The notes below the pieces were generated by a model. It was not told the origin of the DNA. It made no database searches and saw only the letters and a list, made by a program, of their open reading frames with translations. Below, piece by piece: positions 789 through 19,696 of a stretch of DNA of 64,000 nucleotides. How positions within the stretch are numbered: position 1 is the first letter of the stretch; the number at the start of each line of letters is the position of its first letter. The stretch comes from Bacteroidota bacterium. Lineage in GTDB: Bacteria; Bacteroidota; Ignavibacteria; Tepidaquicellales; Tepidaquicellaceae. Location: positions 63,426 to 127,425 of the forward strand of contig JAFDZO010000017.1 of NCBI GenBank assembly GCA_018266845.1. The letters run 5' to 3'. Both the position numbers and the translations under genes were made by a program.

Positions 789-806
789 AGCGTATTATTT
801 TAATTT

Positions 807-944
807 TTATTCCTGTTCCTCTAACTTTTGAACTTTCTTGTCCAGTTTCCATAAGTAGCCGAAAATCCCTATCCATATTATCAAAACTACAAGCATTACG
901 AGTATTCTGGAATTATCCAGAAGAAATTTCACAATTGATTCCAT
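807..944 (-). CDS. ccmD: CcmD-like small membrane protein
   Basis: A 45-residue ORF found by reading the gap between ccmC and ccmE. Its ATG (944-942) overlaps the ccmC stop by one base (TAATG), which suggests coupled translation. The protein has one transmembrane helix (about 13-31) followed by a charged tail (YLWKLDKKVQKLEEQE). This is the usual architecture of CcmD, which stabilises the CcmABCD complex that releases heme-loaded CcmE. CcmD proteins are poorly conserved in sequence, so the call rests on size, topology and exact position in the operon. Confidence 0.8.
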   Translation of the reverse strand: MESIVKFLLDNSRILVMLVVLIIWIGIFGYLWKLDKKVQKLEEQE

Positions 945-1633
945 TATATTGCAACACTCCTTAATTTTTTGATTGATAACTTTTCTATTCTAACGCGAAG
1001 ATTATAAATCCATACATACAGCATTACAAATCCTATCGAGGAAGTATAAAAAATAATTCTCATTGTTGTATTCATTTCATTTTTTACAACCGGTCCGCCG
1101 CCGGGACTTTGGGTATCATCGGCAGAGCCAGGATGAAGCCCGGGAAATACTCTCGGCATAATGAAGATAAAAAACGGAACAGTAAGGAAAGCAATAATCA
1201 AATACACTGCCGAAAGCCTCGCCTTTTTTTCTTCTTCGTCAATCGAAGAGCGTAAAATCAGGTAAGCGGCATATATAAGCATAAGCAAAAGAATAGACAT
1301 CATTCTCGGTTCATCAATCTTAAAAAATGTTCCCCAGTCAACCCTTGCCCATATAGTCCCCGTTACATAGCCCAATATACAGAATACTAAACCAATCTCT
1401 GCTGCGCAGTGCGCCTTTATATCAAAATCAATATTCTTTGAAATCAGATAGCGTATTGAAAAAACCATAGACATTAAAAAGGCAACCGAAGCTACCCAGC
1501 TCATAGGCACGTGAAAGAAAAGATTTCTTGCGCGCTCGCCAAGCCCGGGAATAAAATCAATAGGAACAAGCAAACCCGCAACACATACACTGCTGATAAT
1601 AAAAAAGACTAATATTTTATAATAAGCTTTCAT
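944..1633 (-). CDS. ccmC: Heme export/handling protein CcmC (CcsA superfamily)
   Basis: 229 residues with six hydrophobic helices. CcmC presents heme to CcmE. The two expected axial-ligand histidines are visible: H41 in FFHVPMSW and H167 in FPGLHPGS. The WWD loop is recognisable at residues 95-110 (WARVDWGT...DEPRM), but the core normally read as WWxWD is FFKID (103-107), so the three signature tryptophans are replaced. The start overlaps the stop of the upstream TPR lipoprotein gene at base 1633. The fold, histidines and neighbours make CcmC clear; the changed loop is noted as a finding. Confidence 0.9.
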   Translation of the reverse strand: MKAYYKILVFFIISSVCVAGLLVPIDFIPGLGERARNLFFHVPMSWVASVAFLMSMVFSIRYLISKNIDFDIKAHCAAEIGLVFCILGYVTGTIWARVDWGTFFKIDEPRMMSILLLMLIYAAYLILRSSIDEEEKKARLSAVYLIIAFLTVPFFIFIMPRVFPGLHPGSADDTQSPGGGPVVKNEMNTTMRIIFYTSSIGFVMLYVWIYNLRVRIEKLSIKKLRSVAI

Positions 1634-2121
1634 TATTGCGGAACAGGAAGTCCCATTTGATTATAAATTTCCTCAATTTTATTTTTATTAGCAATTGCTT
1701 CCTCATTCTTTGGGTCAAGAGCTAAAACTTTGCGGTAGTATTTCAGCGCCGGACGATATTTTTCTTTCGGAGGAACATTAGCTTCAAACATCATGTAATT
1801 ACCCGCTGTAAGATTTTTTTCTATAGCAAGTTTCTTGCTTGCATCAGATTTATCTTTTTCATATTTAGCATCGGCATCTTCTGCATCTTTTTTCACTTTA
1901 GCTACATTTTCATCTTTGCCGGACTCCGTCTGGCTATCCATCTGTTGAGAATTGTTTTTATCTCCGGTGATAGGCGGGTGATTCGGAGGAAGCTGTCCCT
2001 GCTGCTGCTGGTTTTGATTCATTGGAGAATTTTGTGTAGTTGGAGATTTCTTTTCCTCCATCTTGTCGCAGCCTGCAAAAACAAATACCGCCAGAATAAA
2101 TAAGTAAAAATATTTTTTCAT
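1633..2121 (-). CDS. TPR lipoprotein in the ccm operon
   Basis: 162 residues. The N-terminus is a lipoprotein signal ending FAGC (Cys18). A low-complexity Gln/Asn/Pro linker follows (about 24-55, including LPPNHPPI), then a Lys/Asp-rich helical stretch and a C-terminal TPR-like pair of helices (about 115-160, with YYRKVLALDPKNEEA). The gene lies between ccmB and ccmC and abuts ccmC. In proteobacteria a TPR protein (CcmI/CycH or NrfG type) binds apocytochrome C-termini during maturation. A similar apocytochrome-holding role is inferred from the TPR and location only. No detailed homology to CcmI was recognised. Confidence 0.7.
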   Translation of the reverse strand: MKKYFYLFILAVFVFAGCDKMEEKKSPTTQNSPMNQNQQQQGQLPPNHPPITGDKNNSQQMDSQTESGKDENVAKVKKDAEDADAKYEKDKSDASKKLAIEKNLTAGNYMMFEANVPPKEKYRPALKYYRKVLALDPKNEEAIANKNKIEEIYNQMGLPVPQ

Positions 2122-2152
2122 TATTGTGTTATGTTTAAAACGAAATTATTTG

Positions 2153-2815
2153 CTAATCTTCCCAAATATATTTGAACAAAATAAACGAAGTAATAGTTAC
2201 AACAACGGTATAGGAAAAAAGGAACAAAAACTCTGAATACAAACGCCCCGTTTCCACTCCGGCTGTAGATAATTTTCCCGCCTCAATAAGACTTAAAAGC
2301 AGCGGCAAAAGCACAGGAAAAGAAAGCACAGGGTAAAGTGTTCCTTTTGAGTTCGCTTTGGAAATTATCGCTGCAATGATAGTTGATGCAGAAACAAGAC
2401 CCATATTACCCAGAAAGAAAGTAATTACAAAGCCGGGGAAATTTTTAATCACTATCCCGGTCGCCATTATAAAAAAAACAAAAATTACTGCGTTAATTAA
2501 AAAAGATAAAGCAAAATTAAAAATGAACTTACCTGCGAGCACTTCTGGATGAGAAGTGGAGAGTTTTAACGCAACTGATGTTTCCTTTTCTTCCTCCTTA
2601 ATGAAAACACGGGATAAACCGCTCGATGCTGAAAAGAAAACAACAATCCAAAACAATCCCGATAATATTTCATTATCGGTTTTATCTTCGCCGAGTGAAA
2701 ACTTTATGATTATTATGGTTACAACCACAAACATCAACAGCGAATTAAAAGCAAACTTGGTTCTTAATTCAGACTTAAAATCTTTCCTGAATATCTCAAC
2801 AGAACTTTTTAACAA
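2153..2815 (-). CDS. ccmB: Heme exporter membrane subunit CcmB
   Basis: 220 residues with six hydrophobic helices and the CcmB hallmark region FSASSGLSRVFIKEEEKET near residue 60, followed by PEVLAGKFIFNF. CcmB pairs with the ATPase CcmA and with CcmC/CcmD to release holo-CcmE. It is the first gene of the visible ccm run and lies about 200 bases after the 18-heme cytochrome gene on the same strand. Its partner ccmA is not adjacent; the best candidate is 12.6 kb away at 15453 on the other strand. Gap 2816-3022 contains only a 23-codon ORF (2927-2998) that I do not support as a gene. Confidence 0.9.
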   Translation of the reverse strand: MLKSSVEIFRKDFKSELRTKFAFNSLLMFVVVTIIIIKFSLGEDKTDNEILSGLFWIVVFFSASSGLSRVFIKEEEKETSVALKLSTSHPEVLAGKFIFNFALSFLINAVIFVFFIMATGIVIKNFPGFVITFFLGNMGLVSASTIIAAIISKANSKGTLYPVLSFPVLLPLLLSLIEAGKLSTAGVETGRLYSEFLFLFSYTVVVTITSFILFKYIWED

Positions 2816-3022: not shown

Positions 3023-5092
3023 TTATTTTACAAATTCTTTTAACTTTTTCTTTTTCTCTCCAATCAAAGTGCTTATCAAATCATAATTATGAACATAAAT
3101 TGAAGAGTAAGGATTAATCTGATTGTAAAGTTTTTTAGCGTCGGAAACTTCCCGCTTCTGCTCTTCATTCAGGTTCATTCCTTGAGCTTTATTTATAAGG
3201 GTATTTAAGTCATTCTTTAAATTATTGACATCTTTTTTCCAGTCATCCATAGCTGTTTCCATACCGGCTTCGTGGCACTTTAAGCAAATCTTGTTATCAG
3301 GCTTAATTATTTTATCACCTGTAATGTGGCAGTCAATGCAACCGGCGCCCCCAGCCTTCATAATGTCAGGCTGGTTTTTTCCTGCAAAGTTGCCGTTATA
3401 AATTTGAACCTGAAAACTGTGGCAATTTCCGCAGGTTTCATTTGCCTTATTCCCTGAATGGTGGCAGCTATTACAGCTTTGCTTACCTATTATAAGCTCT
3501 CCGTGTTTCTGTTCGTTTGAATGGCAATTGTTGCAGGATATTTTTTCCTTAGCTATATGTTGATTGTGTGAGAAATTCATCCCGAATTTCTTTACAGAAA
3601 TCTCCTGAATTCCTGAATGACAATTGTAGCATTCATTCGGAATATACTCTGAGCTTGATTTGAAATCTGGCAGCCCCGCCGATGAGCCGATTATTGTCAG
3701 GGATTTTTTCATTAAGCCGTAAGCTGCTACAAGAAGCTTATCGGCAAATGCAACATTATGAACACTCTTTCCTACCTCAACAATCTTAATATTATGCTGG
3801 GCTTCATCAAGAACCTGCAAAGCTTCATTCTTCTTTTCAGCTTTGGAATTCTTTACATGATTTTCAACTGTATTGTAGATTGTTTTTATTGTTTTCAGCC
3901 TGCTTACAGCCGCAGTCTCCCATTGTTTTACAAGTTTGTCATATCCAGTGCCGTGGCATTTTTCACAAGAAGAAGGTCCTGCTTTAGATGTTTGAATACT
4001 TTTTTTATCTACTTCATGAAATACATGGCATCCTTTGCAGTTAATGCCGTTCATAAACATTGCGCTCGGAGTTTTTTCCGCATCAAATCCACCCTCGCCC
4101 GTGTAAAGTTTTACCTGTGAAGTATGAGCATTTTCATGGCAGCTATTACAATCCGGTGGAGCGTTAGCATCTATTGTTTGTATCTTATGCGAAATTGCCG
4201 AGTGGCAATTAGTGCAGCGCATACTATGCTTCTTAATATGGGTATCATGAATTAAATGAAGGTCGTTGTATTTTTCAAGTCTTTCATTTTCAAAGTGGCA
4301 TTGGAAGCATCTTTCCTTTCCTACCTCGCCATTTCCTGCTACCATATTGTTATGGCAGCTCTTGCAGTCAATATTATTTTTTGCAACAAGAGTGTGATTA
4401 TATCTATAGCTTGCCATTTGTTCTGGAGTTTTATCTTTCCATGAATGGCATGTAGAACACTCCGATAATTTATCGAATTTATGCTCTTTATCGTCGGATT
4501 TTTTGAAGTGGCAGTTATAACAAGTTGAAGAAGTAACCTCTATGTGAGTACCCTGAACTATTTGTCCGTGACAACTTGTGCATTTTAATGTTTTTCCTCT
4601 TCGCTGCTCCTGAAGATGATTCTTATGGTTAAAACTTATTCCCTTAAAATTATATGTTGAATCATTCAACGCCTGCTTATCATGACAACCTGACCTTGCG
4701 CAGGTGTTATCAGGAATTTCCGCCCATGGTTTTCTTTTCTTATATGATAGAGAAACGTAGTTTACTATCTGAACAAGACCGTTTAGCTTACCCCGTATTG
4801 TCCCGGATATTCCCGGTTCAAAATGGCATTCTACACAGTCAACTTTATTATGAGCAGATGTTCTCCAGCTCTGATAAAAAGTTTCCATATAATGGCACGT
4901 TGGACAGAATGCAGGTCTTGAAGTGTATTCAGCAGAAGATGCTATTAATATCAAAAGAATTAATAAATAAATGCCCGAGAAAAGAAGAAATCTTTTAAAG
5001 CCCGAAATTTTTTTGAAGATTCTTCTTTGTTTCGGAACCGGCTTATGCTCATATTGAGCATCACCGGTTCCTTGTTTTTCTTCATTATCCAT
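3023..5092 (-). CDS. NapC/NirT-headed multiheme cytochrome c (17 CXXCH + 1 CX4CH)
   Basis: 689 residues. A cytoplasmic lead of about 33 residues precedes one transmembrane helix (about 34-52). Immediately after it comes a NapC/NirT-type block beginning CPTCHYM (C63-H67, then Met69), the heme-1 pattern of quinol-oxidising NrfH/NapC proteins, and CVECH. CARSGCH is a CX4CH site. The rest of the protein adds CXXCH motifs to a total of 17, interrupted by a heme-free helical stretch (about 390-470) and ending in a helical tail. It is likely an inner-membrane quinol-linked cytochrome reaching far into the periplasm. It follows the c554-like gene by 37 bases. The substrate or partner is inferred only from context. 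Confidence 0.88.
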   Translation of the reverse strand: MDNEEKQGTGDAQYEHKPVPKQRRIFKKISGFKRFLLFSGIYLLILLILIASSAEYTSRPAFCPTCHYMETFYQSWRTSAHNKVDCVECHFEPGISGTIRGKLNGLVQIVNYVSLSYKKRKPWAEIPDNTCARSGCHDKQALNDSTYNFKGISFNHKNHLQEQRRGKTLKCTSCHGQIVQGTHIEVTSSTCYNCHFKKSDDKEHKFDKLSECSTCHSWKDKTPEQMASYRYNHTLVAKNNIDCKSCHNNMVAGNGEVGKERCFQCHFENERLEKYNDLHLIHDTHIKKHSMRCTNCHSAISHKIQTIDANAPPDCNSCHENAHTSQVKLYTGEGGFDAEKTPSAMFMNGINCKGCHVFHEVDKKSIQTSKAGPSSCEKCHGTGYDKLVKQWETAAVSRLKTIKTIYNTVENHVKNSKAEKKNEALQVLDEAQHNIKIVEVGKSVHNVAFADKLLVAAYGLMKKSLTIIGSSAGLPDFKSSSEYIPNECYNCHSGIQEISVKKFGMNFSHNQHIAKEKISCNNCHSNEQKHGELIIGKQSCNSCHHSGNKANETCGNCHSFQVQIYNGNFAGKNQPDIMKAGGAGCIDCHITGDKIIKPDNKICLKCHEAGMETAMDDWKKDVNNLKNDLNTLINKAQGMNLNEEQKREVSDAKKLYNQINPYSSIYVHNYDLISTLIGEKKKKLKEFVK

Positions 5093-5129
5093 TTAATGCG
5101 AATAAAGGAGTTTAAGCACAAAGCGAAAG

Positions 5130-5690
5130 TTATTGCGGCTTTGAGTGTTTTATTTTTGCCCAGAAAGAATCGTAATCAAAGCTCTTAAATGTAGGGCTGT
5201 TTTCATTGTGGCAGCCCGTGCAGAACATTGCTTTCTCTGTATGTAAAATCAATCCGTTCTCCATAGCTTTCTGCTTATCCTTCATTACTGACATAGATTT
5301 ATACTCTGAGCCGGGTCCATGGCATGTTTCACACTGAACACCGTCCTTAATGCTGAAGGTTTCCAATGTCATTGAAGCATCAGCATTTGTTACGTGGCAT
5401 TTCAAGCAAGCAAGTGTTTCTTTTGCAGGAGTTTTGTATCCTTTTTCGCTTGCAATTTTATCCGCTTCAGCGGTTTCAAGAACTTTATAAGCCTGAGAGT
5501 GCTTGGAGTTTTTCCAAATTTCAAGCTGATTGCCTTGAGCTTCGGTCTTGTGACACGCTCCGGCGCATTTTTCCGCGCCAACATATTTTGGCGTATCGGA
5601 AGGCTTTTCATAACTCATAAACGAATATGAAATTACTCCCGATAAAAAAATGAAAAAGAAAACTGTGTAAATGTAGCTTCTGGTTTTCAT
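5130..5690 (-). CDS. Cytochrome c554-like periplasmic multiheme protein
   Basis: 186 residues with an N-terminal signal anchor (about 7-24). Heme sites are C42-A-G-A-C46-H47 (a CX3CH), CLKCH (95-99), CETCH followed by GPGSEY (120-124) and CTGCH (157-161). The order YVGAEKC..CH, then W-NS-HS, then CxxCHGPGS-H is typical of the cytochrome c554 family (tetraheme electron carriers). It sits between the cytochrome b gene (72 bases upstream) and the 18-heme gene, which suggests a periplasmic shuttle between these modules. Three sites are canonical. Whether the CX3CH site is hemylated cannot be told from sequence. Confidence 0.85.
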   Translation of the reverse strand: MKTRSYIYTVFFFIFLSGVISYSFMSYEKPSDTPKYVGAEKCAGACHKTEAQGNQLEIWKNSKHSQAYKVLETAEADKIASEKGYKTPAKETLACLKCHVTNADASMTLETFSIKDGVQCETCHGPGSEYKSMSVMKDKQKAMENGLILHTEKAMFCTGCHNENSPTFKSFDYDSFWAKIKHSKPQ

Positions 5691-5761
5691 AGTTTTTAGC
5701 TGTTTAATGGTTTTAAAAATATTTTTATAACTTATTTTATATTTCAGACAAAGTAAAAGTA

Positions 5762-6529
5762 TCAGGTTTCTTTTTCCTCTGCTTCTTTTTTTACTTTCTC
5801 TTCTTTTTCAAGTTCCAATGTCTTTTTATACTCTTCCAATTTTTCAAGTTCCAATGGATGCTCTTTTTCCATTTCTTCATGCGTTAGATAACCGAAAAGC
5901 CACGCCTTATTCATCGGGACAACATCAGGATTTAGAAAAACAAAATAAAAGTGCCAGACAAGTATTGCAAGAGTAGCAAGTATCGCTTCGTAAAAATGAA
6001 TAGCCGTAGCGATATTCATTCCGTCGTTATGAATTATCGGCAGAAATTTGTTTTGGAACCAAAGCACTATTCCGGTTCCCCCCATTATTATTGTGCCCCA
6101 TACAACTGCCCAATATTCAGCTTTTTCGATATAGCTGAACCGCCCAAATTTCGGTTTGTTGTGAGATTTAGAAAAGAAGTATTTTATTACCTGTACAACA
6201 TCCAAAATGTCTCTTTTTTTCGGAAGCATATCAAGGAAAAAATGTCTTCCTCTTGCTGTAAAAATCAAATAAAATAAATGATACATACAGCCGGCTATCA
6301 TAATAGCCGAAGCAGTTCTATGAATTATTCCCCGAAGCTCAAATGCGGATTTCCCTATCAAAAACTGAATCCATTTTACCCAAAAAGCATCGGGATACTT
6401 TAGCCAGAAGCCGGTAATCACAAGCACAATAAATGTACTGGCAAGAATAAAATGTTGAATGCGCTCGCTCCGCGTCATTCTCAAATATTTTCCTTCGCCT
6501 AACTCAACAACTAAATTATGCTTTTCCAT
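5762..6529 (-). CDS. Diheme cytochrome b membrane subunit (FdnI/HyaC-like)
   Basis: 255 residues with four main transmembrane helices. Histidines within or at the ends of helices (H26, H70, H84, H178, H193) give the pattern of cytochrome b subunits that move electrons between a periplasmic partner and the quinone pool (formate dehydrogenase gamma and Ni-Fe hydrogenase b types). The C-terminus is a long charged, Glu/Lys-rich tail. Its start lies inside the end of the 19-heme cytochrome gene (14-base overlap), so the two are translationally linked and probably form one complex. No dehydrogenase catalytic subunit is nearby, so electron exchange with multiheme cytochromes is the simplest reading. 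Confidence 0.87.
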   Translation of the reverse strand: MEKHNLVVELGEGKYLRMTRSERIQHFILASTFIVLVITGFWLKYPDAFWVKWIQFLIGKSAFELRGIIHRTASAIMIAGCMYHLFYLIFTARGRHFFLDMLPKKRDILDVVQVIKYFFSKSHNKPKFGRFSYIEKAEYWAVVWGTIIMGGTGIVLWFQNKFLPIIHNDGMNIATAIHFYEAILATLAILVWHFYFVFLNPDVVPMNKAWLFGYLTHEEMEKEHPLELEKLEEYKKTLELEKEEKVKKEAEEKET

Positions 6530-8468
6530 CTTCTGTTGTTTCCTGTTTTTCGGATTCGATTTGGTTTTCTTCTTTTTTCAATTTTTTCTTTTTCAAATAA
6601 TCAAGCAGGTTGTGCAAAGTCATTGCCCCTATGGTTCCAAATATAATTAAAATATAAAATCTGGTTATCCAGTACATCCAAGGGGACTCTGTTTGTGGAT
6701 TTACAATATGAATTTTAGTTTCAAACAATGTCTTGTCTGCCAGTTTATGGCATTGCCCGCAGGTCTTTGTTAAGTTCGCTTTAAAAGTCGAAGAGAGAGA
6801 ATCTTCTGAACTTCTTACATTATGATAACCGTGGCAGCTTTCGCAATTTGCAGCATCTCCTGAACCCCCTCTTACCGCAAGACCATGGAAGCTTTCATTA
6901 AAAGTACGCGTAACATCTCTAAGCTCATTACGCTGAATTATACCGGATGAAGAATGACAGTCAGAGCAGAGCTTTACTATGCTCTTGGAAACTACATTTT
7001 TATCGAGAGTAGAATCACGCTTTGCAACCTGATGGTTACCATGACAATTAATACATGTCGGAGCGTCTTTATTATCTTTGCTTACAGCTGTTTGATGAAT
7101 GCTTCCGGTAAATTGCCCTGCCTGCTTCTGGTGACAATCCGCGGTACCGCAGGTTGCAGCTATATTTTTTTTGTTTGTTTTAGATGCAGCATCGTCAGAA
7201 GGCTTCATCTCGTGAGCCCCATGGCAGTCTGCGCAGGAAGCAGAATTAGTATTGCCGTTTTTTAAAGCAACATAGTGAACGCTTAAATGGTAATTACTTG
7301 CAAGCGAATCCGAATCTTTCTTTGTATCACTTGTAAGTTTTCCGCCCTTGTGGCAGCTAAGACATAAATCTGTAGTGTTTATCTTAGAAAATTTTTCAGA
7401 TGAAACAACGGAAGAAATATCGTGCTCTCCGTGGCACTTTGTGCATGACGGGGCATTGTTATCTCCTTCAAGAAACGCCTTACCATGAGCAGAGTTCTTA
7501 TACTTAATAACTTCATTTTCGTGGCACTTGCTGCACGTCTGGACTAAATTGGCTTTTGTTGTTGCGCTTCCCGGGTTTTTCGGGTCATCAAGCTCATGAT
7601 TTCCATGACAGTCTATACAAGTAGCTGCTTGCTTGTTGTTTTTGCCTGTCAATTTACCGTGAACACTTGTTTTATAGGTAGCTACAAATTTAGCCGAACC
7701 TTTGTTTTCGCCCGGAAATTTCTTTTCATCAAGGTGGCATTTCAGGCAAGCTTGCGTTTGAATATCCAGCTTGCTTGAGAAAGTTTTGTGAACCCCATGG
7801 CAATCTGTGCATACAGGAGCATTTGCGCTGCCATCCCTCATCATTGATTTATTTAAGATATTGTCTAACTTTTCATGCGCGCCTTTATGACACCTATTGC
7901 AAGTTTTTGTAACTTCATTTTTTGAAACACCTGTTACCTTATGACCTGAATTATGGCAATCAGAACATAAAACATTTTTCTGAAAATGAGCTGTTGTTTT
8001 AAATGATTTTATGCTTTTTTGATTGTGGCATTTTGTGCAAAATTCAACCTGTGTAGTTTTAATTTCTTTAGCAGGGCTTGAATAGTGGGGATTATGGCAG
8101 CTCTGGCATTTTACTTTTTCATGTGAATTATGTTCGCCGGATTTAACGTCTCCGTGGCATGACTTGCAATCAACTTCAGATTTCTTAGAAGTGTGCGGAA
8201 GGTCATCAGGGTTATAGTTTAGGTGGCAGTCTTTACAGTCTGCTCCGCTGTGCACGCCTTTTTCATACTTTGCTTTATCAACGAAAAGAGAAACCTTTTT
8301 TTCCTTTACCTCCATCGTTAAATCTTTATCCTCATGGCAGGCAAAGCAATCATCATTAGCTTTTGTAAAGGGAATAGTAGTTTGAATATCCGTGAATAAA
8401 ATCAACCATACTATTCCCGTTACAGCCAGAGAAAATAAAATCAGGTTTTTTGCAAAATCAAGACGCAT
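6516..8468 (-). CDS. Membrane-anchored 19-heme cytochrome c (18 CXXCH + 1 CX4CH)
   Basis: 650 residues. An N-terminal helix (about 8-27) acts as an uncleaved anchor or signal. A heme-rich body contains 18 CXXCH motifs plus CGTADCH (CX4CH). A second transmembrane helix near the C-terminus (about 598-618, WMYWITRFYILIIF...) carries a His and ends in a Lys/Glu-rich cytoplasmic tail. Many sites read CxxCHGxH or CxxCHGAH, supplying the distal ligand close to the heme. Overlap with the cytochrome b gene suggests a cytochrome b/c quinone-interacting complex. The exact redox direction is not visible. Confidence 0.88.
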   Translation of the reverse strand: MRLDFAKNLILFSLAVTGIVWLILFTDIQTTIPFTKANDDCFACHEDKDLTMEVKEKKVSLFVDKAKYEKGVHSGADCKDCHLNYNPDDLPHTSKKSEVDCKSCHGDVKSGEHNSHEKVKCQSCHNPHYSSPAKEIKTTQVEFCTKCHNQKSIKSFKTTAHFQKNVLCSDCHNSGHKVTGVSKNEVTKTCNRCHKGAHEKLDNILNKSMMRDGSANAPVCTDCHGVHKTFSSKLDIQTQACLKCHLDEKKFPGENKGSAKFVATYKTSVHGKLTGKNNKQAATCIDCHGNHELDDPKNPGSATTKANLVQTCSKCHENEVIKYKNSAHGKAFLEGDNNAPSCTKCHGEHDISSVVSSEKFSKINTTDLCLSCHKGGKLTSDTKKDSDSLASNYHLSVHYVALKNGNTNSASCADCHGAHEMKPSDDAASKTNKKNIAATCGTADCHQKQAGQFTGSIHQTAVSKDNKDAPTCINCHGNHQVAKRDSTLDKNVVSKSIVKLCSDCHSSSGIIQRNELRDVTRTFNESFHGLAVRGGSGDAANCESCHGYHNVRSSEDSLSSTFKANLTKTCGQCHKLADKTLFETKIHIVNPQTESPWMYWITRFYILIIFGTIGAMTLHNLLDYLKKKKLKKEENQIESEKQETTEDGKA

Positions 8469-8490
8469 ACAATGTTAACAGGATTTGATT

Positions 8491-9291
8491 TTACTTTACC
8501 AAAACCATTTGTTTTGTTTCAGTAAAATCTTTTGTCTTTAATGAGTAATAATAAATTCCGCCGGCAATATCGCCTGCGTTGAAATCAACTTTATACTGAC
8601 CTCTTTCTTTAAAAGAGTTTACCAATGTAGAAATTAATTTACCCGTATTATCGTAAACTTTCAACTCTGCATTTCCTGCTTCCTTCATAGAATAAACTAT
8701 GCTTGTAACAGGATTGAAAGGATTCGGGAAATTTTGCTTTAGTTCATAGCCGTTGGGCTGGTATTCATTATTATTAATAACGCCTGTCATAGTGTAAACT
8801 TTTACTCTTTTATTGCTCCAGTTCCATTGACCGCCTGTTCCGCCTGTCGAGCTTAAAGCTGTTGAGAAAATTGTATCTGTTGTATTTATATTAGGGGCAG
8901 TGTAGTTAAAAGTAAAACTTACAGAGCCGCCGGAAAAACTTTTACCGGTTGTGTGCACTATTTCACTATTGAGAAGCTGGGTTCCTGTTTGATTTGTTGA
9001 CAGAGTTCCGCTTCTGACAGCAACATCAAGCCCGCCCTTTGAGCCTGTTGCGCTCGTTATTGTAAGAGTATATGATGAACTCATTCCTTTAGCGAGACTA
9101 TCAGGTCCCGTAATTACTACTGATAAACCCGTTGTTGCTCCAGAGCCGTGGCACGAGCCGCAGCCGCTTGTTGAGGTTTTTTGCGTTCTTCCGGTTATAC
9201 CGTTTGGATAATTGTAGAGGTTTTGCGATGTAAACAGAAATACGATTAAAATAAAAATCGAAGCAAAAACGAAAAGCAATTTAGCCTTCAT
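8491..9291 (-). CDS. T9SS-exported protein with choice-of-anchor V-like domain and one CXXCH
   Basis: 266 residues. After an N-terminal signal (about 1-22) comes GRTQKTSTSGCGSCHGSG, with a single heme motif at C44-H48, then a beta-rich domain (about 55-170) resembling the choice-of-anchor V family. The C-terminal 80 residues form a type A sorting domain (QNFPNPFNPVTSIVYSM ... MVLVK). The protein should pass the outer membrane by T9SS and be anchored at or released from the surface. It stands 22 bases before the 19-heme gene in the same transcription direction. A single solvent-exposed heme would fit a terminal or mediator role, but this is inference. Confidence 0.82.
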   Translation of the reverse strand: MKAKLLFVFASIFILIVFLFTSQNLYNYPNGITGRTQKTSTSGCGSCHGSGATTGLSVVITGPDSLAKGMSSSYTLTITSATGSKGGLDVAVRSGTLSTNQTGTQLLNSEIVHTTGKSFSGGSVSFTFNYTAPNINTTDTIFSTALSSTGGTGGQWNWSNKRVKVYTMTGVINNNEYQPNGYELKQNFPNPFNPVTSIVYSMKEAGNAELKVYDNTGKLISTLVNSFKERGQYKVDFNAGDIAGGIYYYSLKTKDFTETKQMVLVK

Positions 9292-9331
9292 ATGAATAAA
9301 TTTGTTTTAATAAATACCGGAAGTAAAGAAA

Positions 9332-9357
9332 CCGGCACGGTTTTAACACCGCGCCGG
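9332..9357 (-). terminator. GC-rich hairpin between two T9SS cytochrome genes
   Basis: Stem CCGGC-a-CGGT / ACCG-c-GCCGG with a 6-base loop, lying between the octaheme gene (ends 9398) and the next gene downstream (starts 9291). On the minus strand it is followed by a short T-rich stretch. It could be a terminator or a partial attenuator that lowers expression of the distal cytochrome genes. Confidence 0.5.
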
Positions 9358-9397
9358 CTAAAAAGCAGGAGAATAACATTATTATATAGAACGAATA

Positions 9398-11479
9398 TTA
9401 TTTTACTAACATCATCTTCTTTACATCTGAGAAATCGCCCGCTGTAATTCTGCAGAAGTAAACACCGCTGCTTACTCCAGAGTTTGCTGCATTCCAGTCA
9501 ACTATGTATTTACCCGGGTTCATTACGGTATTAGCGATAACTGCTACCTGTTTTCCCGTAATGTCATAAACTATCATCTTTACGTTACTTGTCTTCGCAA
9601 TCGCTACATTGAACTTCGTTGTCGGATTGAACGGATTTGGATAGTTTTGTGAAAGCTCATACTTAATAGGAACTTCACTTGATGTAGGAGTTATTCCTGT
9701 TAAGATATTAATAGAAGCTACCAAAGCATCAATTGCATATTTAGGATTGTGCATTCCGCGTTCAGAACCTTCACTAATTGATAAGTAATTGTAGTAAGCT
9801 TTTCTTAAGTTTACATTGTTTGAGTCTGCTGCTATTAACTGCCATGCAACTGAATCAACTCCGACCGGCGGTAATTTTATTCTTAATTTTCTTACCGTAC
9901 CGTCAACCTCAAGTCTCCATGGTTCAATCTGTCCGTCGCCGTCATAATCCTGATCAGCGATAAACTGGTCAAATCGGGTTTTTCCAAAGTGGCAATTTTG
10001 ACATGCTTTCAGGTGGTCATAATCTGTTGCTTCGTTATGCAGATAAAGCGCGTGTCCGCCGACTTTATCCTTGTTTGCTGCCGTTGTATCTGTCGGAGCC
10101 ATGTGGCATGTAACGCAGCCATTTGGCAAGAATGCAAAGTGTTGTGTTTGTCTATATGGAGAACCGCCGAACGTAGCAAGGTTTTGACCTAAGAATAAAT
10201 CTCCCTGACTGTTGTGGTGTGGTCCCCAGGTTGAACTGGTAACTCTTGTTGTAACCGGATACGTAACAGCGCTTCTTCTTGCTTTATGGCAGTCAAGACA
10301 GACAACACTGTTTCCTACGCCTGTATAATGGAAACCGTTAGCCAATGTATCGCTGTTTAAAGGTCTTGTTCTTAAAGTGCCTGTATGAGGGTCGTGGCAT
10401 GAAGCGCATGCAACCATTTCGTGCTGAGCCTGAGTCATTCCGTTTGTATAGGTTGACTTTCCTTTTGTAAAATTAACGTATCCTTGTCCGTCGTGGCATC
10501 TTATGCAGTTTCCTAAATCATTAGGAGTTGCATAATTGTTTTGAGCAAATGAACTTGACCATACAACTTGTGAGTGTCGGGCATTTTTCCATTGTGTAAA
10601 TTGTGAACCTACCAATGGTGAATCGTGGCATTTTCCGCAATTTCCTTCATCAACGCTTTTCATTATTCTTAGTGTATCGCCGCCGTTATAAACGTGCTCG
10701 CTTCCGGGACCGTGGCAGCTTTCGCATCCAACATTAGCAAATGCAACAAGTGAGGAAAATCTGTTTTTCAGTGAGTCCCAGTTTGCAGGTTTCGGAGGTG
10801 AATATGATGTCCAGTTCCAGCCTAATGTTCTGGCTTTATCGTCAAAGCCGTTATTATCTGTAGCGATATAGTGGTCATATCCGAGAGTGTGGACTCTGAA
10901 ATTGTTGATTCCGTAGGTAGTAGGTCCTGCGGTAATCATTGTTTTAAACTTATTGGCATGGTCTGTAGTCTTCCATGAATTAAAAATATTTTGGAATTTT
11001 GGAGTTGAACCGTGGCAGCTCATGCAGTTCGGAAAAGATGCCGCTACGTTATCATATCCGCCAGTACCGACAAATGTTGAAGCATATATTGTTGTCGTAG
11101 TGTCTTTGTTGCCTCCTGCTGTAACTATAGAAACCTTAACTTCATAAACACCCGTCAAATCGGCTTTAAATTTTTGCCACGTTGAAAGACCTGTAACGTT
11201 TGAAAATGCTGCCGTTGAACCTGCCGGTTTTTGATTGAATGTCCATGTAATTCCTGTAATAGGATTTGTATCACCGAAATTCCACGCCCTCAAATATACG
11301 TAAGTGCCTTTGGCTACCGTTCTCAAGCCTGTTGCAACAGTTGAGTCGGCAGTAAAAGCAGAATTGGACGCATACATGTTAGGCGTTACATATTCAGTAA
11401 CAATTTTCACGCGTGGAGCACCAAGCAACGTTCCGGCGCAAAAAACTAATAGCAGTAAAATTGTACTAACCAGTTTCAT
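9398..11479 (-). CDS. T9SS-exported octaheme cytochrome c
   Basis: 693 residues from the ATG at 11479. I prefer this over the upstream in-frame ATG at 11623 because it begins a clean signal peptide (MKLVSTILLLLVFCAGTLLG) and is preceded by AGGAG at 7 bases. A beta-sandwich (Ig/PKD-like) domain covers about 25-140. Eight CXXCH motifs follow, the first at C152-H156 (NCMSCHGS) and the last ACQNCHFGK. Then comes a non-heme stretch and a C-terminal sorting domain (NYPNPFNPTTKFNV ... MMLVK). The protein is therefore predicted to be on the cell surface, the natural position for a terminal electron donor to outside acceptors. No CXXCK site or catalytic signature of nitrite reductase or hydroxylamine oxidoreductase was seen. 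Confidence 0.88.
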   Translation of the reverse strand: MKLVSTILLLLVFCAGTLLGAPRVKIVTEYVTPNMYASNSAFTADSTVATGLRTVAKGTYVYLRAWNFGDTNPITGITWTFNQKPAGSTAAFSNVTGLSTWQKFKADLTGVYEVKVSIVTAGGNKDTTTTIYASTFVGTGGYDNVAASFPNCMSCHGSTPKFQNIFNSWKTTDHANKFKTMITAGPTTYGINNFRVHTLGYDHYIATDNNGFDDKARTLGWNWTSYSPPKPANWDSLKNRFSSLVAFANVGCESCHGPGSEHVYNGGDTLRIMKSVDEGNCGKCHDSPLVGSQFTQWKNARHSQVVWSSSFAQNNYATPNDLGNCIRCHDGQGYVNFTKGKSTYTNGMTQAQHEMVACASCHDPHTGTLRTRPLNSDTLANGFHYTGVGNSVVCLDCHKARRSAVTYPVTTRVTSSTWGPHHNSQGDLFLGQNLATFGGSPYRQTQHFAFLPNGCVTCHMAPTDTTAANKDKVGGHALYLHNEATDYDHLKACQNCHFGKTRFDQFIADQDYDGDGQIEPWRLEVDGTVRKLRIKLPPVGVDSVAWQLIAADSNNVNLRKAYYNYLSISEGSERGMHNPKYAIDALVASINILTGITPTSSEVPIKYELSQNYPNPFNPTTKFNVAIAKTSNVKMIVYDITGKQVAVIANTVMNPGKYIVDWNAANSGVSSGVYFCRITAGDFSDVKKMMLVK

Positions 11480-11782
11480 GGCTATTCTCCTGTTTAATGG
11501 ATTAAAAATTTGAAAGTATTTTATTTCTGTAAACATATTTGAAAAGTTTTTCCGTTCAAGAATCTTATCAAAATTTATATAAAAATAAAAAGTGTTTTCA
11601 TTTTTCGCTATGACTCCCCTCATATAAAAACATGATGTAAATCATTTTTAATATTTCAGGAAATATTTAAGTTGTATGTAGCATTTTGTGTTTTTATTAA
11701 AAAATAGAAAATTTTTAAAATTTTTTCGATTTTTGTGTAATAAAAGCGAGGTTTTGTTTATTCACTCAAACAGATAAACACC
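11480..11782. promoter_or_regulatory. Divergent promoter region of the electron-transfer locus
   Basis: 303 bases without a gene between the start of the octaheme gene (minus) and the porin gene (plus). It contains the octaheme ribosome-binding site (AGGAG, minus strand, 11487-11491), two palindromes (11632-11645 and 11650-11667) and a very A/T-rich stretch (11690-11760). Both operons must start here, so it is the likely control point of the whole locus. Individual promoters were not assigned. Confidence 0.6.
11632..11645. promoter_or_regulatory. CRP/FNR-like palindrome
   Basis: ATGATGTAAATCAT is a palindrome with half-sites TGAT and ATCA separated by 4 bases, the spacing of CRP/FNR-family boxes (TTGAT-N4-ATCAA). 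Five bases further on, at 11650-11667, lies a second perfect palindrome, AATATTT-cagg-AAATATT. Position in the divergent promoter supports a regulatory role. The binding protein is unknown. Confidence 0.5.
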
Positions 11783-13090
11783 ATGAAATCTCATTTACTG
11801 GTTTTAGTTTCACTTCTTTTTATTTCGGTTTTTAATCTCGCCGAAGCCCAATCGCTAAATTTCAGATTTAATAATTATTTTTACAGTTGGCAAAGAATTG
11901 ATAGTCTTTCCGATGCTGAAACGGCAAAGACTACTCATATAAGAGGTTATCAGAATTATCTTCTCGAAGTTAACTCGGGCAAATGGTCGTTAAATACCCT
12001 TGCCCAGACAGAGGAAGATGTGTTAAATAAGGTTGATTCAAAGGGATTTAACTACAGGTTCTATAATCTGTATTTGAAGGGCAGCAACCTGTATAATATG
12101 TTAGATGTAAAAATCGGACGACAAAATTTATTTGCAGGCGCCGGAACAGGAACAATGGACGGACTTTATCTTAAGCTGAAAACAGGCAAAAATAAAGAAT
12201 ACCAGTTCGCTCTTTACGGAGGAACTCCCGCCCCTTACTCTTATGAATTTGAAAACTATTCAGACCTGAGTAAAAATTATCAGTTTGGCGGACAGTTTAC
12301 GTATTACGGTGTAAAAGATTTAATGGCTTCGGTCAGCTACTTAAATAGAAAAAGAACTCCCCAGTCTTATACGGCAGTAAGATTAGACAGCGCATTTAAT
12401 ACTACTATCAGAGAACTCACTTTTGATGGTCCCGCTGAACAGCTTGCCGGTTTTGATTTTAACTACGTTTTCCCGGCAAAACACAATGTCTTTGCAAAAG
12501 CATACTACGATATTGAATTCAAAAAATTATACAAGGCGGAGGTCAATTTAAAGCTGGCATTATCAGATGCTGCCAGAGTTTTCGGAGAGTATATTTACCG
12601 CGAACCGCACTATACATATAACAGCATTTTCTGGGTATTTAATTATACCTCCTATCAGGAACTGTCAGGAGGATTTGATTATACTTTAGATAATGGAATT
12701 AATATTTACGGAAAGACCGGTTTGGTTCAATACAGCAACGATAACTCGGTTAAAATTGATGTCGGATTTACTCATCCGAATTACGGATTTACATACAGCA
12801 GATACTTTGGGTACGCAGGAGAATCCGATGGAGTATCGGGATATTATCAAAGAAATTTTAACGACAATCTTTTTTCAGCTTCCGCTTCAATCAATTATTC
12901 AAGATACCGCCTTGGAAATTCCTATGATACAGATAAAATAAATTCTCTGAATTGGATGCTTGGCTTAACATACAGACCTATTCCTCAGATTTCTATTGAT
13001 GCGCAGGAACAGGTTCTTATAAACAGAATTCACGAATTCGATATAAGAGGTTTAATCGGATTTAGTTATTGGATGTTTAAAAAGTTTTAA
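11783..13090 (+). CDS. Outer-membrane beta-barrel porin of a porin-cytochrome conduit
   Basis: 435 residues. The signal peptide ends AEA-QS (about residue 22). The rest is alternating amphipathic beta-strand sequence rich in Tyr, Phe and Asn, ending in aromatic Phe (WMFKKF), as expected for an outer-membrane barrel. It is followed at 10 bases by a 14-heme cytochrome and then by a heptaheme lipoprotein. This barrel/periplasmic cytochrome/lipoprotein cytochrome order is that of porin-cytochrome complexes described for Geobacter and relatives, where the barrel houses the heme wire across the outer membrane. No detailed similarity to a named porin is claimed; the role rests on topology and operon. 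Confidence 0.78.
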   Translation: MKSHLLVLVSLLFISVFNLAEAQSLNFRFNNYFYSWQRIDSLSDAETAKTTHIRGYQNYLLEVNSGKWSLNTLAQTEEDVLNKVDSKGFNYRFYNLYLKGSNLYNMLDVKIGRQNLFAGAGTGTMDGLYLKLKTGKNKEYQFALYGGTPAPYSYEFENYSDLSKNYQFGGQFTYYGVKDLMASVSYLNRKRTPQSYTAVRLDSAFNTTIRELTFDGPAEQLAGFDFNYVFPAKHNVFAKAYYDIEFKKLYKAEVNLKLALSDAARVFGEYIYREPHYTYNSIFWVFNYTSYQELSGGFDYTLDNGINIYGKTGLVQYSNDNSVKIDVGFTHPNYGFTYSRYFGYAGESDGVSGYYQRNFNDNLFSASASINYSRYRLGNSYDTDKINSLNWMLGLTYRPIPQISIDAQEQVLINRIHEFDIRGLIGFSYWMFKKF

Positions 13091-13100
13091 TATTAAGAGT

Positions 13101-14357
13101 ATGAAAATTGCAAAATTCTATTTACTCATGTTTTCAGGTCTGATTATCTTTCTGGTAACGACTGCTTACTTTTACAAAGATGCCTCCGTAAAATACAGGC
13201 TCGGAAAAGTATTTTCAGCAGCTCAGGATGATAACAGTAAAATAATAAAGTTTAACCACAAGATACATATTGCAGATGCAGGGATTAAATGCGAGGATTG
13301 TCATACCGCATCTGGAAAATCAACTTCCTTAAAGGATAACTTAAATCCTAAAAAAGAAGTCTGCGCTACATGCCATGATGTGAAAGACAAAAAGGATTGC
13401 TCTCTCTGCCACTATGATGGAGTTTTTGCAAAACTGAAACCTGCAAAAAGCGAATTAATCTTTTCGCATAAATATCACATTGAAACCGAAAAGAAAAAAT
13501 GCGCCGACTGCCATCAGGGAATCGAAGCGGTAAAATTTGCAAAAGAAAGCGCTGCAGGAATGCCTTCAATGGAGTCCTGCGTAACCTGCCACGACAATAA
13601 AAAGGCAGCCAATGACTGTGAAGCGTGCCATAGCAATTTGACGAACCTTCATCCGGTTACGCACAGAAGCCCGAACTTCCTTAACGAGCATAAGATAAAT
13701 ACCACTATGGAATCGGGAAAGAATAATTGTATGATGTGCCATAGCGATAATTTCTGTCAGGCATGCCACTCGCCTTCAAAATTTAAAGGAACCAATACAA
13801 AAGATAATTTTTATGCTCCTTATTATACAAAAGAAGGCGCTGTCAGAACAGACAGAACGGCTTTGCAGAAATTAACAAACGCTCACGATTTAAATTATAA
13901 ATTCACTCACGGGCTTGACGCTAACCAGAAAAGTTTTGAATGCAAAACCTGCCACAGTGAACAGACTTTCTGCGCCAATTGCCATCAAAACGGAGGAGAG
14001 TTGATTTCAGGTATTGCCCCTACCAGCCATCAGATTGCGAACTTCACAACGTTTGGAGTAAATACCGGCGGTGGTAAGCACTCTGAGCTTGCAAAGAGGG
14101 ATATTGATGCCTGCTCTTCATGCCATAATACAGAGGGAAGAGACCCGGTATGTATTAGATGCCACTACGATAATGACGGTGTGAAGGGCACTAATGCAAA
14201 AACACATGAATACGGATTTATGAAAGATGAAAAAGGTATCTGGCATAATACACAGGGAGCAGTTTGCTACACATGCCATACGGATGCTAATGCCAAGCCA
14301 AATGGAATCGCCGGCGTAGGATTCTGCGGATATTGCCACGGACAAAAAACGAGATAA
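13101..14357 (+). CDS. Periplasmic 14-heme cytochrome c
   Basis: 418 residues, with an N-terminal hydrophobic signal (about 5-24) and 14 CXXCH motifs, the first CEDCH at 64-68 and the last CGYCH near the C-terminus. Its first heme block (NHKIHI...CEDCH, SHKYHI...CADCH) resembles cytochrome c7/c3-like repeats that supply distal His ligands upstream of each motif. No lipobox or transmembrane tail is seen, so it is probably periplasmic or docks into the barrel. It lies 10 bases after the porin and 22 bases before the heptaheme lipoprotein, one operon. Confidence 0.87.
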   Translation: MKIAKFYLLMFSGLIIFLVTTAYFYKDASVKYRLGKVFSAAQDDNSKIIKFNHKIHIADAGIKCEDCHTASGKSTSLKDNLNPKKEVCATCHDVKDKKDCSLCHYDGVFAKLKPAKSELIFSHKYHIETEKKKCADCHQGIEAVKFAKESAAGMPSMESCVTCHDNKKAANDCEACHSNLTNLHPVTHRSPNFLNEHKINTTMESGKNNCMMCHSDNFCQACHSPSKFKGTNTKDNFYAPYYTKEGAVRTDRTALQKLTNAHDLNYKFTHGLDANQKSFECKTCHSEQTFCANCHQNGGELISGIAPTSHQIANFTTFGVNTGGGKHSELAKRDIDACSSCHNTEGRDPVCIRCHYDNDGVKGTNAKTHEYGFMKDEKGIWHNTQGAVCYTCHTDANAKPNGIAGVGFCGYCHGQKTR

Positions 14358-14379
14358 ACAAAAAAAAATTCTTACTATC

Positions 14380-15234
14380 ATGAAAAAGATTTTCATATTC
14401 TACGGATTGCTCTTAATTCTTTTGACATCACTTATTGTTTATCAGGGATGCGCAAAATTCGATAATACGATTACCTCTGCTCCTGATATTGATACTCATC
14501 CTGACGGCTGGGCAAATCCATCTTCATCAACTTTTCACGGAAAATATATTGTATCTAAGAAGCTTTGGAATCTTAACCAATGTAAAGCGTGCCACGCAGC
14601 AGATTACACAGGCGGTTCAACAGGCTCAAGCTGCCTTGGCTGCCATAATGGAAGCGGCGGTCCTGAAAATTGCCGTCTATGCCACGGAAACAGCGACCAT
14701 GCAAATCCGCCAAAGGGTGTTTTCGGTGATACTCTAACAAGCTACATCGGTGTAGGAGTTCACGCTACTCACGTTAACAATCCGAAGTATTCGGCAGCTT
14801 TACACTGCTCGGATTGCCATGCTTTTGGGGGATTTTCAGACCCGAACCATATAGGAGATAACCCTGACGGAATTGCAGAGATTACTTTTGGAGATTTAGC
14901 TAAAGATACATCTCTGGGCGGCGGAATAAAGCCGAACCCAATCTGGAACAGAACTAATGCAACATGCTCAAGCGTTTACTGTCATGGAACATTCAAGCAG
15001 GGCAATACAAGCGCTTCGGCAACATGGACAGACGCAAACAGCGTAAAGTGCGGTTCCTGCCATGGAAACCCAAGCACGGGAAACCCCACTCCGCAAGTCG
15101 TGGGAGTATTTACATCTCCTCACTTTTCATTTATGACAACAACTACCTGCTACATTTGCCACGGCAGCGTGATAAACGGGCAAGGGGTATTTGTAGATAA
15201 GAGCAAGCATATAAATGGAGAGGTAAATTATTGA
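14380..15234 (+). CDS. Heptaheme lipoprotein cytochrome (6 CXXCH + 1 CX4CH, Geobacter-type repeat)
   Basis: 284 residues. The N-terminus is a lipoprotein-like signal with Cys24 in VYQGC. Heme sites are CKACH, CLGCH, CRLCH, CSDCH, CSSVYCH (CX4CH), CGSCH and CYICH. The pair CSSVYCHG...W...CGSCHGNP matches the C4xCH/C2xCH repeat pattern first noted in Geobacter sulfurreducens multiheme proteins. As a lipidated cytochrome encoded directly behind the porin and the 14-heme protein, it is the likely outer-leaflet end of the conduit. The lipobox is not perfect (Gln at -2), so lipidation is probable rather than certain. Confidence 0.83.
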   Translation: MKKIFIFYGLLLILLTSLIVYQGCAKFDNTITSAPDIDTHPDGWANPSSSTFHGKYIVSKKLWNLNQCKACHAADYTGGSTGSSCLGCHNGSGGPENCRLCHGNSDHANPPKGVFGDTLTSYIGVGVHATHVNNPKYSAALHCSDCHAFGGFSDPNHIGDNPDGIAEITFGDLAKDTSLGGGIKPNPIWNRTNATCSSVYCHGTFKQGNTSASATWTDANSVKCGSCHGNPSTGNPTPQVVGVFTSPHFSFMTTTTCYICHGSVINGQGVFVDKSKHINGEVNY

Positions 15235-15365: not shown

Positions 15366-15397
15366 AAAACCTCCGCGTCCTGCGGAGGTTTTATTTT
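15366..15397 (+). terminator. Rho-independent terminator of the porin-cytochrome operon
   Basis: Stem AAACCTCCGC / GCGGAGGTTT (15367-15376 and 15382-15391) with a 5-base loop, followed by a T-rich run. It ends the plus-strand cytochrome operon before ccmA. Confidence 0.85.
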
Positions 15398-15452: not shown

Positions 15453-16100
15453 ATGAAAAAATCTGCTTTAGTCTGTTCTGACCTTACAAAATACTTTTCG
15501 CACAGGCTTATTTTCGGCAATTTGAATTTTAGCCTTCGCGAATGCCAGTCAATTGGAATAGTGGGCAAAAACGGCTCGGGAAAATCCACGCTGGTGAAAG
15601 TTATCTCGGGAATAATATGCTCGTCAAAAGGCAGGATTGAATTTTCCATAGAGAATACCCCTATAGATAAAGAAAATTTTTTCCGGCATATAGGGTTGAT
15701 GTCGCCCTACCTGAGCTTATATGACGAGCTTAGCGGATATGAGAACCTTGATTTTTTCATTAATCTTAAATCACACGATAAGCCGCCTAAAGAAAAGGAA
15801 GAGAAAATTAATTTTTTACTGGAAGAAGTAGGGCTTTACAAAAGGAGAAAAGACCTCTATAAAAACTACTCTTCCGGTATGAAGCAGCGGCTGAAGCTTG
15901 CCTTTGCCCTGCTAAACGACCCGCAGCTCCTGCTGCTTGATGAGCCATGCGCCAACCTCGATAAGGAAGGGATAGACGTGGTTTACCGCTTTGCCGAGGA
16001 GCAAAGGAAGCGGGGAATGCTAATTATAGCCACAAATGAGGAATCTGACCTGAAATTGTGCGATTCTCTTATAGATATTGAGAATTTTAAACAAAAATAG
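15453..16100 (+). CDS. ccmA: ABC transporter ATPase, CcmA-like
   Basis: 215 residues, a single nucleotide-binding domain: Walker A GKNGSGKS (38-45), ABC signature YSSGMKQR (139-146), Walker B LLLLDEP (159-165). The short length and SGMKQRLKLA signature fit CcmA, the ATPase that works with CcmB/CcmC to release heme-loaded CcmE. It is the only ABC ATPase gene in the window, and the minus-strand ccm operon (1-2815) has ccmB but no ATPase, so I read it as the displaced ccmA. It is monocistronic, flanked by a terminator upstream and an inverted repeat at its stop codon. Another small ABC function cannot be excluded from the sequence alone. Confidence 0.75.
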   Translation: MKKSALVCSDLTKYFSHRLIFGNLNFSLRECQSIGIVGKNGSGKSTLVKVISGIICSSKGRIEFSIENTPIDKENFFRHIGLMSPYLSLYDELSGYENLDFFINLKSHDKPPKEKEEKINFLLEEVGLYKRRKDLYKNYSSGMKQRLKLAFALLNDPQLLLLDEPCANLDKEGIDVVYRFAEEQRKRGMLIIATNEESDLKLCDSLIDIENFKQK

Positions 16101-17202: not shown

Positions 17203-17231
17203 AAACAATTTTTTCAAGCGCAAAGAGAAAA

Positions 17232-19493: not shown

Positions 19494-19696
19494 AAAATTC
19501 TTTCGATCAACTTGCAGAGGCTTATGAATCATTGAAGAAATTCAAAGATAAAGAAATTTTCAAATTAGCTATGAGAAAATTTATAAGCCTCTGCATTTAT
19601 AAAAAAGTTCTGAAATACACTGCTCCGGCGCAAGAGAAAACCGAATAAATTATTCGGTGAGGTTTCCGGAGAAAAAATAAAAACAAATACCCTGCT
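19494..19696. other. Intergenic region with nested inverted repeats
   Basis: Holds a perfect 13-bp inverted repeat, TGCAGAGGCTTAT (19513-19525) with ATAAGCCTCTGCA (19583-19595), then CTCCGG (19623-19628) with CCGGAG (19666-19671) enclosing the palindrome CCGAATAA-a-TTATTCGG. One plus-strand frame stays open through most of it but has no start codon. It could form a processed leader or terminator for the flanking T9SS genes. Confidence 0.4.

What the first reader, a model, noticed from the sequence alone, without database searches (positions are those of the whole stretch)
3023..15234. Contiguous quinone-to-surface multiheme electron conduit
Seen directly: seven heme proteins with 67 CXXCH and 4 CX3CH/CX4CH sites, a cytochrome b, a porin and T9SS signals within 12 kb, in two divergent operons next to ccm genes. 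From family knowledge: cytochrome b and NapC-like modules exchange electrons with quinones, and porin-cytochrome clusters cross the outer membrane. Inference: the whole is one extracellular electron transfer system, with inner-membrane, periplasmic, outer-membrane and surface stations all encoded together. I know of porin-cytochrome clusters reported in this phylum, but not this exact combination with T9SS-exported heme proteins.
Basis: partly seen in the sequence, partly recalled or inferred. Interest (0 to 1): 0.88.

Follow-up and report, generated by a model that had tools for sequence, protein, structure and literature searches.

The report
Extracellular electron-transfer cytochrome gene cluster
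A 12-kb gene cluster in an Ignavibacteria-type bacterium encodes a predicted wire that carries electrons from the inner membrane to the cell surface; most of it is a known kind of porin-cytochrome system, but its outermost cytochrome resembles the surface reductase OcwA of Gram-positive iron reducers and carries a type IX secretion tail.

Summary
In detail: 67 CXXCH plus one CX3CH and three CX4CH sites, a b-type cytochrome, a porin and two T9SS tails lie in 3023-15234, flanked by ccm genes. (1) 11783-15234 (porin, 14-heme cytochrome, 6-heme lipoprotein), with the c554-like gene, matches by anatomy the Pcc cluster published for Ignavibacterium album, so that part is known. (2) In relatives D-C-A-B-porin-14h-6h form ONE co-directional operon; the two divergent arms here are a local rearrangement. 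(3) D plus C is a split version of a fused multiheme/cytochrome b protein found elsewhere in the class (CbcL/MtrH architecture); A is a NrfH/NapC-type module with extra hemes. (4) The T9SS cytochrome F is a PKD domain, an OcwA-like heme domain (closest solved structures by profile and by fold) and a T9SS tail; it has lost heme 2, an active-site heme in OcwA. Its family co-occurs with the porin (75 of 95 porin-positive genomes, 3 of 54 others) but is often encoded elsewhere. E is probably not a cytochrome. Function, electron direction and surface location are inferred, not shown. New variant of a known kind.

The parts
3023..5092 (-). A: 689 aa, N-terminal membrane anchor + NrfH/NapC-type module (CPTCHYM) + further hemes; 17 CXXCH + 1 CX4CH; predicted quinol-side inner-membrane/periplasmic cytochrome
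   Evidence: Cytochrom_NNT 1.6e-10, NrfH 1.7e-16; CPTCHYM conserved in relatives; 28/149 genomes, 27 of them within 20 kb of the porin
5130..5690 (-). B: 186 aa c554-like cytochrome, 3 CXXCH + 1 CX3CH; predicted periplasmic shuttle; directly upstream of the porin in most relatives
   Evidence: (Cytochrome_C554 1.7e-15)
5762..6529 (-). C: 255 aa diheme-type cytochrome b (FdnI/HydC-like), 4 TM; overlaps D by 14 nt
6516..8468 (-). D: 650 aa, 18 CXXCH + 1 CX4CH, N- and C-terminal TM; with C equals a split form of the fused multiheme/cytochrome b protein of class relatives
   Evidence: D 31-646 to L043 54-683; C 15-216 to L043 685-888 in one 936-aa ORF
8491..9291 (-). E: 266 aa choice-of-anchor V protein with T9SS type A tail; one non-conserved CXXCH; probably not a cytochrome, but next to F in several relatives
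9330..9359 (-). terminator-like hairpin between F and E (12 pairs, 8 GC)
9398..11479 (-). F: 693 aa, signal peptide + PKD-like domain + OcwA-like heme domain (8 hemes, heme 2 lost) + T9SS type A sorting domain; predicted surface terminal reductase
11783..13090 (+). G: 435 aa outer-membrane beta-barrel (Pcc porin)
13101..14357 (+). H: 418 aa, 14 CXXCH; predicted trans-outer-membrane/periplasmic Pcc cytochrome (cf. IALB_1838, 400 aa, 14 hemes)
14380..15234 (+). I: 284 aa lipoprotein-type cytochrome, 6 CXXCH + 1 CX4CH, Geobacter CxxxxCH domain; predicted outer-membrane/surface Pcc cytochrome
   Evidence: Cys after a short hydrophobic signal conserved in all 18 homologues examined
15366..15392 (+). 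terminator-like hairpin after I
15453..16100 (+). probable ccmA (ABC ATPase, below the equivalog cut-off) on the far side of the cluster
399..2815 (-). ccmE (399-788), ccmC (944-1633), a TPR lipoprotein (1633-2121) and ccmB (2153-2815); ccmF begins at 355 and runs off the window

Best explanation
A class-conserved extracellular electron transfer module. Quinol is oxidised at the inner membrane by two alternative modules: D+C (a split CbcL/MtrH-type multiheme/cytochrome b protein) and A (NrfH/NapC-type with extra hemes). Electrons pass through the periplasm (A and D heme arrays, c554-like B) to the porin-cytochrome complex G-H-I, in which the 14-heme H is seated in the barrel G and meets the lipoprotein I at the outer face. 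F, loaded with heme in the periplasm by the Ccm system encoded alongside and exported by the type IX system, sits on or near the surface as an additional OcwA-like terminal reductase. Shown here: gene content, domain and fold homology, conserved operon, co-occurrence, presence of SprA and PorU. Inferred: electron flow and direction, localisation, and that F receives electrons from I/H.
For: Single operon D-C-A-B-G-H-I in nine relatives, with inserted genes in some; co-occurrence of porin with cyt b (Fisher p 1e-28) and with F (p 2e-19), not corrected for phylogeny; A always with the porin; published Pcc with 14-heme partner in I. album; fused D-C homologues; F profile best PDB hits OcwA (1.1e-22) and the C. 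ferrireducens S-layer cytochrome (2.6e-19), and fold Z 13.7 and 13.4 over about 135-594; T9SS tail in all 20 aligned F homologues; SprA and PorU sortase present in the genome; one cytochrome-c7 profile search finds only two other multiheme loci in the genome.
Against: No expression, localisation or activity data. I. album carries a Pcc cluster but was reported unable to grow on Fe(III) or Mn(IV) oxides (PMC4245776), so the external acceptor is unknown. F is frequently encoded away from the cluster and no hit was listed in 20 of 95 porin-positive genomes. One genome (G116) has F, A, B, G, H, I but no cyt b. F has lost one of the two active-site hemes of OcwA.
Confidence: 0.75

Rival explanations
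1. The conduit (G-H-I with A/B/C/D) is real, but F is an independent secreted reductase of small molecules (nitrite, hydroxylamine, sulfur or metal oxyanions), not electrically wired to it.
For: F belongs to the NrfA/c554/OcwA superfamily; OcwA itself reduces nitrite and hydroxylamine slowly (PMC6703420); F is often elsewhere in the genome and has its own terminator-like hairpin.
Against: F is nearly confined to porin-positive genomes (75 versus 3) and an extracellular reductase still needs an electron source outside the cell; the genome seems to have a separate NrfAH-like locus (by frame sizes only).
Confidence: 0.2
2. The system runs inward: oxidation of Fe(II) or a cathode, with electrons delivered to quinone.
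For: CbcL/MtrH/MtoC-type proteins are proposed to work both ways (PMC6295460).
Against: No RuBisCO large subunit in the genome (other carbon-fixation routes not tested); F is closest to a terminal reductase; NrfH-type modules are usually quinol oxidases (family knowledge).
Confidence: 0.12
3. The cytochromes serve only a periplasmic respiratory network or electron storage; porin proximity is incidental.
For: Several proteins have periplasmic-type signals and no localisation data exist.
Against: Porin-cytochrome adjacency conserved across the class, lipoprotein signal on I, T9SS tail on F.
Confidence: 0.07

Closest known systems
Pcc of Ignavibacterium album (IALB_1837-1840; Shi et al. 2014, PMC4245776)
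   Same: porin, 14-heme 400-aa partner, outer-membrane cytochrome with an atypical heme motif, neighbouring periplasmic cytochrome; same class
   Different: the passages read do not mention genes like A, C/D, E, F or a T9SS tail; no direct sequence comparison with IALB proteins was possible here
Geobacter OmbB-OmaB-OmcB Pcc
   Same: barrel plus inner and outer multiheme cytochromes; CxxxxCH domain first defined in Geobacter found in the outer cytochrome
   Different: Geobacter inner partner has 8 hemes, outer 12 (PMC4245776); here 14 and 6
CbcL/MtrH/MtoC (Geobacter, Rhodoferax, Dechloromonas)
   Same: multiheme N-terminal half followed by FdnI/HydC-like cytochrome b; fused in class relatives with 13-18 hemes
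   Different: split into two overlapping genes D and C here and in the order-level relatives
OcwA of Thermincola potens (6I5B) and S-layer undecaheme cytochrome of Carboxydothermus ferrireducens (6QVM)
   Same: best sequence-profile and fold matches of the F heme domain; cell-surface cytochromes of iron reducers
   Different: F has an added PKD domain and a T9SS tail, is from a diderm, and has lost heme 2 (8 rather than 9 hemes)

Membership tests
Porin-cytochrome complex (Pcc) | outer-membrane beta-barrel encoded next to multiheme cytochromes | tested here: met
   barrel model; porin-14h-6h adjacency conserved
Porin-cytochrome complex (Pcc) | periplasmic/trans-membrane multiheme partner and outer-membrane lipoprotein cytochrome | tested here: met
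   H 14 hemes; I lipoprotein-type signal and 6-7 heme sites; gene-level only
Porin-cytochrome complex (Pcc) | homology to IALB_1837-1839 or OmbB/OmaB/OmcB | not tested
   reference sequences not held; match is by size, heme number and order from PMC4245776
Porin-cytochrome complex (Pcc) | trans-outer-membrane electron transfer | not testable with these tools
   needs proteoliposome or whole-cell assay
CbcL/MtrH/MtoC | single polypeptide with multiheme N-half and cytochrome b C-half | tested here: not met
   D and C are separate overlapping ORFs here, though collinear with a single 936-aa ORF in a relative; works like, not a formal member
NapC/NrfH quinol dehydrogenase | N-terminal anchor and first heme motif CXXCHxM with NapC/NirT domain | tested here: met
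   CPTCHYM, PF03264, TIGR03153 (below its equivalog cut-off)
OcwA-like nonaheme cytochromes | heme domain fold of c554 (hemes 1-4) + NrfA (5-9) with C-terminal helices | tested here: met
OcwA-like nonaheme cytochromes | nine hemes | tested here: not met
   heme 2 cysteines lost in the window copy; nine in most homologues
T9SS type A substrate | C-terminal TIGR04183/PF18962 domain and T9SS machinery in the genome | tested here: met
   SprA; PorU over cut-off; C-terminal domain resembles the PorU CTD
T9SS type A substrate | actual export | not testable with these tools
   needs fractionation

The most novel reading that the evidence does not exclude
Type IX secretion is a route by which diderm bacteria place a fully heme-loaded OcwA-type terminal reductase on their surface, paired with a porin-cytochrome conduit; the same reductase domain recurs in other T9SS phyla (KSB1, Calditrichota, Bacteroidetes) with the tail and in several phyla without it, so the export tag is swapped while the reductase is kept.
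Probability: 0.5. Interest if true: 0.7.

Novelty: new variant of a known kind. Interest (0 to 1): 0.52.

Why it matters
It gives a complete, testable parts list from quinone to surface for electron transfer in Ignavibacteria, which are found on anodes and in iron-rich sediments but lack a worked-out pathway. It also links Gram-positive surface reductases (OcwA) to diderm conduits and suggests the type IX system exports holo-cytochromes, which searches of the held literature did not turn up.

Tried and rejected
Plain chance or a low-complexity artefact for the CXXCH sites: rejected (one CXXCH in ORFs outside the cluster). Viral origin: scan of viral contigs with the F profile found no relative. 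E as a cytochrome: weakened, motif not conserved. F as a plain nitrite reductase: nitrite reductases are lower-ranking sequence hits, though tied within about 1 Z of OcwA in fold. Literature searches combining type IX/T9SS/C-terminal sorting domain with multiheme or c-type cytochrome terms returned no paper; the library lacks most subscription papers, so this is weak evidence of novelty. The Melioribacter proteome paper (PMC5492636) gave no mention of multiheme proteins, porins or secretion in the term searches run. Foldseek alone gave no match below E 0.001 for F; the OcwA match rests on the profile search and VIA-align. MtrB was not among the listed porin fold matches, which says nothing against relatedness. 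Promoter scans found no excess over shuffles.

Full report
Observation. The gene order is, on the minus strand from 11479 down, F, E, D, C, B, A, and on the plus strand G (porin), H, I. The region is flanked by ccmB/ccmC/ccmE/ccmF on one side and a probable ccmA on the other. F most likely starts at 11479, where a signal peptide begins. Gaps are short within each arm (D and C overlap by 14 nt); terminator-like hairpins follow F and I, so F may be a separate transcription unit from E-D-C-B-A.

Parts. A combines an N-terminal anchor, a NrfH/NapC module with the CXXCHxM signature and a further heme array, 17 CXXCH in all. C is an FdnI/HydC-like cytochrome b, D an 18-heme protein with a TM at each end. 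In class relatives a single ORF of 731-936 aa is collinear with D followed by C (D 31-646 on 54-683 and C 15-216 on 685-888 of the 936-aa ORF in L043), with 13-18 hemes, one N-terminal and five C-terminal hydrophobic segments, close to the architecture described for CbcL/MtrH/MtoC (PMC6295460). So D+C is a split version of that type. B is c554-like. G has no family hit but models as a 22-24-strand barrel. H has 14 hemes in 418 aa; I has a lipoprotein-type signal conserved across 18 homologues and the Geobacter CxxxxCH domain. The published Pcc of Ignavibacterium album has a porin, a 400-aa 14-heme partner, an outer cytochrome with an atypical motif and a neighbouring periplasmic cytochrome (PMC4245776); by anatomy B-G-H-I is the same thing. 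OmbB-like Pcc clusters in Ignavibacteria have been reported again since (PMC7399161).

Synteny. In order-level relatives (L030, L031, L033, L034, L036, L037, L039, L040, L041) the seven genes D-C-A-B-G-H-I are one co-directional operon, with extra genes inserted in some; the window's divergent layout is a local rearrangement. Across 149 genomes of the class the porin and cyt b hits co-occur (91 both, 4 and 5 single, 49 neither), and the porin and the F heme domain likewise (75, 20, 3, 51); Fisher p 1e-28 and 2e-19, not corrected for phylogeny, and the F list was truncated in the output so F may be undercounted. Of 89 genomes with both places listed, porin and cyt b lie within 20 kb in 52; many of the others are fragmented assemblies. 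A is rarer (28 genomes at E 1e-40) but every one has the porin, 27 within 20 kb (counted by eye from the listed positions). G116 has no cyt b hit, yet keeps A-B-G-H-I and F, so A can presumably serve as the quinone entry alone.

F. All 20 aligned homologues keep the T9SS tail, and the own genome has SprA and a PorU sortase over its cut-off. The heme-domain profile finds OcwA of Thermincola potens (1.1e-22) and the C. ferrireducens S-layer cytochrome (2.6e-19) before nitrite reductases. The AlphaFold model (pLDDT 82.9) aligns best with the same two (Z 13.7 over 333 residues at 4.2 A; Z 13.4), with NrfA-type enzymes within about 1 Z, a PKD domain at the N-terminus and a PorU-type domain at the C-terminus. 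OcwA is a cell-surface terminal reductase built as c554 (hemes 1-4) plus NrfA (hemes 5-9), with hemes 2 and 5 as open active sites, and its authors suggest octahemes arose by loss of heme 2 or 5 (PMC6703420). In the window copy and three relatives heme 2's cysteines are replaced (SCFKCHTxGYD to NNFRVHTLGYD and similar), and in a second lineage by a different sequence. The equivalence with OcwA heme 2 rests on order and on the c554-like arrangement, not on a direct residue alignment. Outside Ignavibacteria the family occurs with the tail in KSB1, Calditrichota, Bacteroidetes and Glassbacteria, and without it in Verrucomicrobia, Acidobacteria, Chloroflexi and others. The E-F pair is kept in several relatives, so E may be a surface partner, but T9SS tails are very common here (over 200 first-look candidates in this genome) and E's heme motif is not conserved.

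Mechanism. Best supported: quinol to D/C or A, through B and the large heme arrays, to H in barrel G, to I, with F as an additional exported terminal reductase. Domain content, operon conservation and co-occurrence are shown; direction, localisation and the I/H to F step are inferred. Outward flow is favoured by the reductase-type F and the absence of RuBisCO, but not proven. The natural acceptor is unknown; I. album has the Pcc yet was reported not to grow on Fe(III) or Mn(IV) oxides (PMC4245776).

Novelty. The conduit is a known kind and partly published for this class. What I did not find described is the pairing with a T9SS-tailed OcwA-like reductase. I rate it a new variant of a known kind.

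Noticed in passing
9398-11479 (F); L024, L029, L035, L057: Heme 2 of the OcwA-like domain is lost in the window copy, G036, G116 and G046, and with a different replacement in both G054 paralogues. On the tree the four order-level heme-2-less copies are not a clade: heme-2-bearing copies nest among them, so repeated loss, or loss and recombination, is implied.
   Followed up: partly
L032:7371-10556, L039:9327-12534: Two relatives carry an extra module inside the operon: a 15-heme cytochrome, and in L032 by HMM (in L039 by size only) a 4Fe-4S protein and an NrfD-type membrane protein, a possible third quinone entry.
   Followed up: partly
L034:5492-6838, L065:8817-10163: A sigma-54 response regulator of about 448 aa lies divergently beside F in these relatives; ORFs of like size sit near the cluster in others. 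A candidate regulator of the system.
   Followed up: partly
L096:5499-9491: A Sumerlaeota ORF of 1330 aa holds two copies of the F-type heme domain in tandem (16 CXXCH), without a T9SS tail.
   Followed up: no
399-2815 and 15453-16100: The cluster sits between ccmB/C/E/F and a probable ccmA, as if inserted into a ccm locus; ccmC and the TPR lipoprotein gene also follow the operon in L038-L040.
   Followed up: partly
17160-21250: Two further large ORFs with T9SS-like C-termini (NPFNP motif) follow a TrmB-type regulator.
   Followed up: no
L082, L083, L086, L089, L116: Verrucomicrobia-type relatives of F end in a different shared C-terminal segment in place of the T9SS tail, possibly another surface-sorting signal.
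   Followed up: no
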